Part shown: positions 19,243 to 20,172 of the stretch, piece by piece
How the letters are laid out: each line of letters begins with the position of its first letter
Position numbering within the stretch: position 1 is the stretch's first letter
NCBI GenBank assembly: GCA_015999875.1
Contig: JAECRG010000002.1
Location: forward strand, 154,148 to 190,919
Length of the DNA: 36,772 nucleotides
Direction: 5' to 3'
Source: Candidatus Saccharimonadota bacterium
GTDB lineage: Bacteria; Patescibacteriota; Saccharimonadia; Saccharimonadales; Saccharimonadaceae
Translations under genes and position numbers: made by a program
The notes under the pieces: model-generated
What the model saw: the letters and a program-made list of their open reading frames with translations, nothing else
What the model was told of the DNA's origin: nothing
The model's database searches: none

Positions 19243-19248
19243 TATACT
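19243..19248 (+). promoter_or_regulatory. -10 box for the leaderless DUF5652/SRAP transcript
   Basis: TATACT ends 6 nt before the ATG at 19255. There is no ribosome site, and no convincing -35 is visible. Confidence 0.5.
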
Positions 19249-19254
19249 GGCAAT

Positions 19255-19500
19255 ATGTATACTTTCGATCTTCCTATGTGGTCATATATCATTATCATAC
19301 CTCTTGCAGTGTGGTCGCTTTTCTGGAAAGCCATGGCTCTGTGGCATGCGGCGAAGCACGGCAGTAAGTTTTGGTTCGTATTTCTTTTTCTCGTTAACAC
19401 GGTAGGTATTCTTGATATCATCTACCTCATCATCATCGGTAAGCTTAAAGCCGGTGCTCTGTTTGACAACTCTAGCGATGCTCCAGTGGCGAAAGCTTAG
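19255..19500 (+). CDS. DUF5652 family small membrane protein
   Basis: 81-aa protein with two predicted membrane helices (about 10-28 and 40-62). The pattern matches DUF5652, a family frequent in Patescibacteria and archaea: PLAVWSLFWKAMALWHAAKHG, then FWFVFLFLVNTVGILDIIYL. The function is unknown. The C-terminal 20 residues are polar and likely cytoplasmic. The stop codon directly abuts the start of the SRAP gene (TAG-ATG), so the two are cotranscribed and translation of the second probably depends on the first. Confidence 0.82.
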   Translation: MYTFDLPMWSYIIIIPLAVWSLFWKAMALWHAAKHGSKFWFVFLFLVNTVGILDIIYLIIIGKLKAGALFDNSSDAPVAKA

Positions 19501-20172
19501 ATGATAGAACGTTATGCATTGTATGAGATAGACAAGCTTCGCGATCAGTTTAACTTGGCTGCCGGTGTGCCAAAGGGCGTCAAGAGACGGTATAATATCG
19601 TACCTTCTCAGAATGTTCCAGTGATATTGAGCAAAGACGGTGTATCGACGATGGAGCAAATGCAATGGGGCTTCGTATCGCAAAATGCACCAGATACCAA
19701 TTCGATATTTCGCTACAAGACATTTACTGTGCGCTCTGAAGATACTTTCAAAAAAACAATGTGGGAAAAGTCTATTCGTACGCAGCGTTGCTTGATACCT
19801 GCAAATGGATTCTATGTATGGGCGCAAACTCCAGACGGTAAGTTGCCCTATTACGTGCAAGTAAACGATCGTCCGCTTGTCGCTCTCGCGGGTGTATATA
19901 GTAGCTGGACAAATAGTGAAGGTGTTGAATCTGGCATGGCTGCTATCGTGACGGTCCCTGGCGACGAAGCAACAAACGAGTTTACTGACCATTTGCCGGC
20001 TATCGTACATCCAAATCAAGAACAGATGTGGCTTGACCCTGCTGTCAGCGACATGGCATCACTGTATGATGTGATGCGCACTACGTCGTTTAACTCACTG
20101 ACCTTTACTCGCGTGAGCGACAAAATCTATTCGAAAAAAACTGATACACCCGCTCTTATTCTCGAAGCATAG
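19501..20172 (+). CDS. SRAP (YedK/HMCES-like) domain protein lacking the catalytic residues
   Basis: 223-aa protein that follows the SRAP fold from end to end: RYNIVPSQNVPVIL, MQWGFVS, RCLIPANGFYVW, LPYYVQV, ALAGVYSSW and a late LPAIVHP stretch. SRAP proteins cross-link to abasic sites in single-stranded DNA through Cys2. Here the usual MCGRY start is MIERY, so Cys2 is Ile. The active-site Glu of GFYEW (YedK E105) is V106, and the His of HDRMP (YedK H160) is T162. The MINAR motif is also changed (FTVRSED, R78 kept), while N32 of RYNxxP is kept. The fold looks intact and the catalysis lost. Cotranscribed with the DUF5652 gene, with zero spacing. Confidence 0.88.
   Translation: MIERYALYEIDKLRDQFNLAAGVPKGVKRRYNIVPSQNVPVILSKDGVSTMEQMQWGFVSQNAPDTNSIFRYKTFTVRSEDTFKKTMWEKSIRTQRCLIPANGFYVWAQTPDGKLPYYVQVNDRPLVALAGVYSSWTNSEGVESGMAAIVTVPGDEATNEFTDHLPAIVHPNQEQMWLDPAVSDMASLYDVMRTTSFNSLTFTRVSDKIYSKKTDTPALILEA

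What the first reader, a model, noticed from the sequence alone, without database searches (positions are those of the whole stretch)
19501..20172. SRAP-domain protein that lacks all three catalytic residues
The protein keeps the SRAP framework (RYNxxP, WGF, RCLIPA, GFY) but the usual MCGRY start is MIERY, the catalytic Glu of GFYEW is Val (V106) and the His of HDRMP is Thr (T162); the NAR motif is also lost. In YedK/HMCES, Cys2 makes the DNA cross-link and the Glu and His assist. A protein with an intact fold and no Cys2 cannot form that cross-link, so it may bind single-stranded DNA or abasic sites non-covalently or do something new. It is translated directly after a DUF5652 membrane protein with zero spacing.
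Basis: partly seen in the sequence, partly recalled or inferred. Interest (0 to 1): 0.75.

Follow-up and report, generated by a model that had tools for sequence, protein, structure and literature searches.

The report
DNA-repair protein family without its cysteine
A small-genome bacterium carries a well-folded relative of the abasic-site repair proteins YedK and HMCES that has lost the cysteine with which those proteins cross-link damaged DNA; it belongs to a whole, selectively maintained branch of such cysteine-less proteins, although the literature calls that cysteine invariant.

Summary
Window 19501-20172(+) encodes a 223-aa SRAP protein (PF02586, E 2.7e-44; AlphaFold2 pLDDT 92; Z about 26 to YedK and HMCES). 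It lacks Cys2 (Ile2), Glu105 (Val106), His160 (Thr162) and also Asn75 (Thr76) and Arg162 (His164). It is the genome's only SRAP and its one cysteine is the structural Cys97. It is not a lone oddity: 27 Cys2-less SRAPs, all from one Saccharibacteria family, form a single fully supported clade nested among canonical MCGRY proteins, also when active-site columns are masked. Basal members are natural 'C2S' proteins with Asn/Glu/His intact; most others lost His and some also Glu. The clade is under purifying selection (dN/dS 0.03-0.12). Of 14 positions invariant in canonical SRAPs, only six active-site positions relaxed. The start codon is secured by a leaderless promoter at -12 to -14 in 28 of 28 relatives. 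In YedK, loss of Cys2 leaves a Schiff-base lyase that depends on Glu105, so basal members may be AP lyases. The window protein, without Glu and with Met1 probably kept, is most likely a non-covalent SRAP pseudoenzyme. Its DNA binding and role are inferred. The DUF5652 link is not conserved.

The parts
19501..20172 (+). Cys2-less SRAP protein (MIERY start), 223 aa
   Evidence: Pfam PF02586 E 2.7e-44; AlphaFold2 pLDDT 92.3, pTM 0.90; VIA-align Z 26-28 to 2f20, YedK and HMCES; member of the Cys2-less clade with support 100/99
19504..19506 (+). codon 2 = ATA (Ile), where canonical SRAPs have Cys (TGC/TGT)
   Evidence: Cys2 is present in all 30 canonical proteins of the tree (YedK included) and in 78/78 sampled viral SRAPs
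19726..19728 (+). codon 76 (Thr) at the YedK Asn75 position
   Evidence: alignment
19816..19818 (+). codon 106 (Val) at the YedK Glu105 position
   Evidence: alignment
19984..19986 (+). codon 162 (Thr) at the YedK His160 position (codon 164, His, is at the Arg162 position)
19708..19722 (+). FRYKT (residues 70-74), a motif fixed in the Cys2-less clade (F70, R71, Y72 in 27/27)
19255..19500 (+). DUF5652 small membrane protein, upstream gene of the two-gene unit (its TAG stop is followed directly by the SRAP ATG)
   Evidence: Pfam PF18893 E 5.9e-23; adjacency not seen at any other SRAP locus examined
19243..19248 (+). TATACT, likely -10 element of a leaderless transcript starting at the DUF5652 ATG (12 nt spacing)
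   Evidence: sequence; the same arrangement precedes 28/28 other Cys2-less SRAP genes

Best explanation
The gene encodes a SRAP-fold pseudoenzyme, one of the most catalytically stripped members of a monophyletic Cys2-less SRAP clade in one Saccharibacteria family. Shown: one loss of Cys2 in the sampled tree (basal members read Met-Ser-Ser-Arg-Tyr, AGC where relatives have TGC), followed by relaxation of the active-site positions while the fold stays under purifying selection. Inferred, step 1: the ancestor and the Glu-retaining members, with a cleavable Met1 and Ser/Thr/Pro at position 2, could still form a transient Schiff base with abasic sites through the N-terminal amine, as YedK C2A/C2S do, and so act as AP lyases or reversible traps rather than permanent shields. 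Inferred, step 2: the window protein has also lost Glu105, His160, Asn75 and Arg162 and, with Ile2, should keep Met1, so it should do no covalent chemistry and should act only by non-covalent binding, most likely of ssDNA or AP-site DNA through the retained Arg4, Arg78, Trp107 and Thr151, shielding the strand or recruiting a partner.
For: Only SRAP in a 98.6% complete genome. Full-length fold, pLDDT 92.3, Z 26.8 to YedK-DNA and 26.6 to HMCES-DNA over 210-218 residues. 27 Cys2-less proteins in one clade, 100/99, also with 17 active-site columns masked. dN/dS 0.033-0.12 in Cys2-less pairs whose dS is measurable. Of 14 non-Met columns invariant in 30 canonical SRAPs, C2, N75, R77, E105, W106 and H160 fall to 0-78% in the clade while P40, G62, G102, I147, T149, R162, P164 and W175 stay at 85-100%; active-site against other conserved columns, Fisher p 4e-4. 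Start codon fixed by a TATA[AC]T element at -12 to -14 and no SD in 28/28 relatives. PMC9436759: without the Cys2 thiol SRAP makes no stable cross-link but has lyase activity; C2A/C2S trapped by borohydride; C2A E105Q lyase 25-fold slower, C2A H160Q 2.5-fold; active-site mutants still bind DNA.
Against: No biochemistry. DNA binding is inferred from a few retained residues, and R162, whose HMCES equivalent I recall as a DNA-contacting arginine (own knowledge), is His here. Across the clade R77 and W106 are relaxed, which argues that some members no longer need the AP-DNA pocket. No conserved gene neighbour links it to repair. The gene is patchy (35 of 394 family genomes have any SRAP). Window-to-nearest-relative dS is saturated, so selection on the window lineage itself is inferred from pN well below saturated pS and from conserved fold residues.
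Confidence: 0.55

Rival explanations
1. The clade has been repurposed away from DNA: the SRAP fold is kept as a protein-binding module and the former active-site groove drifts.
For: R77, W106, N75, H160 and W67 are relaxed across the clade while the fold is strongly kept and a different motif, FRYKT, is fixed.
Against: Glu105 is still present in 21 of 27 members and W106 in 17 of 27; basal members keep the whole site except Cys2; the window keeps R4, R78, W107 and T151.
Confidence: 0.2
2. A gene on its way out: the window copy is a decaying relic with no remaining function.
For: Window copy has lost five canonical-invariant residues; patchy occurrence; some relatives carry deletions or fusions (L016 lacks the HDRMP segment, L048 is fused to an Nramp fragment).
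Against: Uninterrupted 223-aa frame, all canonical-invariant fold residues except R162 kept, confident fold, pN 0.32 against saturated pS to the nearest relatives, low dN/dS in the clade, codon use like the neighbours.
Confidence: 0.13
3. The window protein is still an AP lyase that uses the Met1 (or trimmed Ile2) amine.
For: YedK C2A uses the alpha-amine alone (PMC9436759); 17 of 18 members with a small residue 2 keep Glu105.
Against: Glu105, the key residue for Schiff-base formation, is Val; Ile2 predicts retained Met1 (general methionine aminopeptidase rule, own knowledge); H160 and N75 are also gone. The association of bulky residue 2 with Glu loss (5/9 against 1/18, p 0.008) points the same way but rests on only 3-4 independent pairs and is not significant on the tree.
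Confidence: 0.08
4. Artefact: sequencing error, wrong start codon or misassembly hides a normal MCGRY start.
For: A single assembly.
Against: The ATG directly follows the DUF5652 stop; codons 2 and 3 both differ; 26 further proteins from other genomes lack Cys2, with start codons fixed by a -10 element; the structure aligns residue 2 to residue 2.
Confidence: 0.02

Closest known systems
YedK (E. coli), SRAP/DUF159 family
   Same: Same fold over the full length (Z 26.8, rmsd 2.3 A, 210 residues); R4, P40, W61, G62, R77, G102, W106, T149, P164 and W175 kept.
   Different: No Cys2, Glu105, His160, Asn75 or Arg162; Met1 probably retained; cannot form the thiazolidine cross-link.
HMCES SRAP domain (human)
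   Same: Fold (Z 26.6, 218 residues); phmmer E 4e-9.
   Different: Same catalytic losses in the window protein.
YedK C2A / C2S laboratory mutants (PMC9436759; PDB 8d2m)
   Same: The basal clade members (L031-L033, and L004) are natural equivalents: Ser2 with Asn, Glu and His intact.
   Different: The window protein goes further: it lacks Glu, His and Asn too.
Canonical MCGRY SRAPs of the same class (L054, L030, L055)
   Same: Nearest canonical lineages to the Cys2-less clade on the tree; two genomes (G255, G196) carry both kinds.
   Different: All catalytic residues present.

Membership tests
SRAP superfamily (PF02586), by descent and fold | Full-length profile match and SRAP fold | tested here: met
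   PF02586 151.7 bits against cut-off 27.1; Z 21-28 to all solved SRAP entries listed
Catalytic SRAP (YedK/HMCES-type AP-site cross-linker) | Cys as the second residue ('absolutely conserved', PMC3765255; 'invariant', PMC9436759) | tested here: not met
   Ile2; clade-wide absence
Catalytic SRAP (YedK/HMCES-type AP-site cross-linker) | Glu105 and His160 acid-base pair and Asn75 | tested here: not met
   V106, T162, T76
Catalytic SRAP (YedK/HMCES-type AP-site cross-linker) | Forms a thiazolidine cross-link with AP-DNA | not testable with these tools
   Needs purified protein; excluded by chemistry if Cys2 is absent
Schiff-base AP lyase (like YedK C2A) | Free alpha-amine at residue 2 plus Glu105 | tested here: not met
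   Window: Val106 and Ile2 (Met1 retention inferred). Relatives L004, L031-L033 and L022-L026 do keep Glu with Ser/Thr2
ssDNA-binding SRAP | DNA-contacting Arg/Trp residues of the groove | tested here: inconclusive
   R4, R78 and W107 kept; R162 -> H164 and W67 -> N62 lost
SOS-associated operon member | Neighbouring LexA / DinB / UmuC / ImuB genes | tested here: inconclusive
   No Pfam match to such a family among the immediate neighbours scanned in the window; among 25 loci one Peptidase_S24 gene (PF00717) lies divergent to the SRAP gene (L098); not every neighbour was scanned

The most novel reading that the evidence does not exclude
A whole bacterial lineage has turned the AP-site cross-linking SRAP domain into something else in two steps: first natural C2S/C2T proteins acting as reversible Schiff-base AP lyases or traps, then fully non-covalent SRAP proteins such as the window's with a new role in ssDNA protection or protein recruitment. 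This would contradict the view that Cys2 is essential to what SRAP proteins are for.
Probability: 0.3. Interest if true: 0.75.

Novelty: new variant of a known kind. Interest (0 to 1): 0.58.

Why it matters
Published work treats Cys2 of SRAP as invariant and its thiazolidine cross-link as the point of the protein. A clade under purifying selection that dropped Cys2, and in part the rest of the active site, is a natural experiment: it separates what the fold does from what the cross-link does, supplies ready-made natural C2S/C2T proteins to test whether SRAP lyase chemistry is used in nature, and warns that 'SOS response-associated peptidase' annotations in these bacteria do not imply cross-linking.

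Tried and rejected
Replacement nucleophile: the only Cys in the window protein is C97, conserved in canonical relatives too; rejected. Canonical paralogue in the same genome: none. Wrong start codon: rejected by the leaderless promoter position in relatives and the structural alignment of residue 2. Functional link to DUF5652: not found next to any other SRAP examined. Conserved operon: neighbours differ almost everywhere; RsgA occurs near the SRAP in 4 loci, probably incidental. Viral origin: a scan of viral contigs with the Cys2-less profile found no relative, and 78/78 sampled viral SRAPs keep Cys2, with the caveat that this sample was drawn by the GFYEW motif. A first AlphaFold2 run with 6 sequences was useless (pLDDT 35.5) and was repeated with 63. 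Link between bulky residue 2 and Glu loss: suggestive in raw counts, not significant on the tree. AP-repair context: Fpg-type (PF01149) and HhH-GPD (PF00730) proteins are present, AP_endonuc_2 (PF01261) was not found, so an AP lyase here would not be the only one. Other phyla were sampled only through E. coli YedK, solved structures and viral/phage records.

Full report
What is there. The window (contig 1 of a 1.04-Mb, 98.6% complete genome) encodes at 19501-20172(+) a 223-aa protein that matches Pfam SRAP over its whole length (E 2.7e-44). Sequence matches to solved SRAP structures are clear: BT_1218 2f20 1.7e-21, HMCES 4e-9, YedK 1.3e-7. AlphaFold2 with 63 sequences gives pLDDT 92.3 and pTM 0.90. 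VIA-align gives Z 28.1 to 2f20, 26.8 to YedK bound to abasic-site DNA and 26.6 to HMCES bound to DNA, aligned from residue 2 to residue 223.

What is missing. It keeps Arg4, Arg77, Trp106, Thr149 and the fold-defining Pro40, Trp61, Gly62, Gly102, Pro164 and Trp175. The only cysteine, C97, sits in RCLIPA and is present in nearly all canonical relatives, so it is no substitute. The genome has no other SRAP gene.

It is a clade. SRAP genes are patchy in this family (35 of 394 sampled genomes). Reading the N-termini of those and of the class and phylum samples shows that proteins from the window's own family mostly begin M[STIFP]x[RK]Y, whereas those of other families begin MC. In a maximum-likelihood tree of 58 proteins the 27 Cys2-less ones form one clade with support 100/99, nested beside the canonical L030, L054 and L055. 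Removing YedK and the longest branches and masking 17 active-site columns leaves the clade at 100/99. Two genomes hold both kinds (G255: L030 and L045; G196: L027 and L046). In the sampled tree one loss of Cys2 suffices.

Order of losses. The basal branch (L031-L033) reads MSSRY with codons AGC AGT against TGC GGN in the sisters, and keeps Asn75, Glu105 and His160: natural C2S proteins. L004 is the same. His160 is kept in only 4 of 27; Glu105 in 21 of 27; it is replaced in the window (Val), L008 and L011 (Gln), L043 (Met), L013 (Tyr) and L046 (Asp).

Selection. For Cys2-less pairs with measurable dS, dN/dS is 0.03-0.12. For the window the nearest relatives are about 51% identical; synonymous sites are saturated (pS 0.78-0.86) while pN is 0.32-0.35, which points to long-term constraint on the protein as a whole. 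Fourteen columns besides Met1 are invariant in 30 canonical SRAPs. In the clade the six active-site or DNA-groove columns among them drop (C2 0%, H160 15%, R77 44%, N75 59%, W106 63%, E105 78%), and the eight others stay at 85-100%. Among all columns at least 85% conserved in canonical proteins, active-site positions are lost far more often than the rest (1 of 10 retained against 22 of 29; Fisher p 4e-4; the sequences are related and the ten positions were chosen from the literature and memory, so this is descriptive). The clade also fixes FRYKT at window residues 70-74, a motif that two sister lineages have as FKYKT.

The start codon. All 28 other Cys2-less genes have TATA[AC]T beginning 12-14 nt before the ATG (most at exactly -12) and no Shine-Dalgarno-like motif, the layout of leaderless transcripts; about 0.8% would be expected by chance per gene. 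This fixes the N-termini independently of the protein alignment. In the window the SRAP gene lacks this element; instead DUF5652 (19255-19500) has TATACT at -12 (19243-19248), and the SRAP ATG follows its TAG without a gap, so the SRAP looks like the second gene of a leaderless two-gene unit. DUF5652 is not next to any other SRAP examined.

How it most likely works. Established biochemistry (PMC9436759): the Cys2 alpha-amine attacks the abasic-site aldehyde to give a Schiff base, the thiol closes the thiazolidine; Glu105 is the main acid-base residue, His160 helps ring opening, Asn75 matters little for internal AP sites. Without the thiol there is no stable cross-link but a Schiff base (trapped in C2A and C2S) and strand cleavage; removing Glu105 as well slows lyase 25-fold, removing His160 2.5-fold; active-site mutants still bind DNA. 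It follows that the Glu-keeping, Ser/Thr/Pro2 members could be Schiff-base lyases, and that the window protein, without Glu105 and with Ile2 (which by the general rule for methionine aminopeptidase should leave Met1 on), should have no covalent chemistry. Its retained groove residues make non-covalent ssDNA or AP-DNA binding the most likely residual function; this step is inference. In the raw counts bulky residue 2 goes with loss of Glu105 (5 of 9 against 1 of 18, p 0.008), as expected if a free amine and Glu work together, but only 3-4 phylogenetically independent comparisons exist, so it is a lead only.

Against what is known. PMC3765255 (2013) calls Cys2 absolutely conserved and always the second residue; PMC9436759 (2022) calls it invariant. 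Eight paper searches found no report of a natural Cys2-less SRAP group or of SRAP pseudoenzymes; the library holds open-licence papers only. The protein is a member of the SRAP superfamily by descent and fold, but it fails the defining features of the catalytic, cross-linking SRAP. I rate it a new variant of a known kind.

Noticed in passing
20 Saccharibacteria loci L083-L102: A -10-like TAYAVT element 11-14 nt before an in-frame start codon occurs in 55 of 182 ORFs of at least 150 aa against 1 of 182 for internal codons: leaderless transcription looks common in this family.
   Followed up: partly
L058 around 1434-1480 (G507, another family of the order): SRAP with an N-terminal extension, MKFDDGCGRY: the Cys is residue 7, so processing would be needed to expose it.
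   Followed up: no
L048 (G190:C3, about 12.1-13.0 kb): C-terminal half of a Cys2-less-type SRAP is fused in frame to an Nramp transporter fragment (PF01566 plus PF02586); Nramp genes lie near the SRAP in L092-L094.
   Followed up: partly
L016 (G002, same genus as the window): Cys2-less SRAP with an in-frame deletion that removes the HDRMP segment.
   Followed up: no
L077 (G805, another family of the phylum): Very divergent SRAP match (E 7e-10) in which GFYEW reads SFVVG and HDRMP reads LARLP: perhaps an independent loss of the active site; its start codon was not determined.
   Followed up: no
L098 6712-7344(+): A Peptidase_S24 (LexA-like) gene is divergent to a Cys2-less SRAP.
   Followed up: no
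L014/L020 (G106): Canonical MCGRY SRAP broken into two frames, either a frameshift or an assembly error.
   Followed up: no
window 19282-20019(-): A 245-aa antisense ORF overlaps the SRAP and DUF5652 genes and is longer than the SRAP ORF; no evidence that it is a gene.
   Followed up: no
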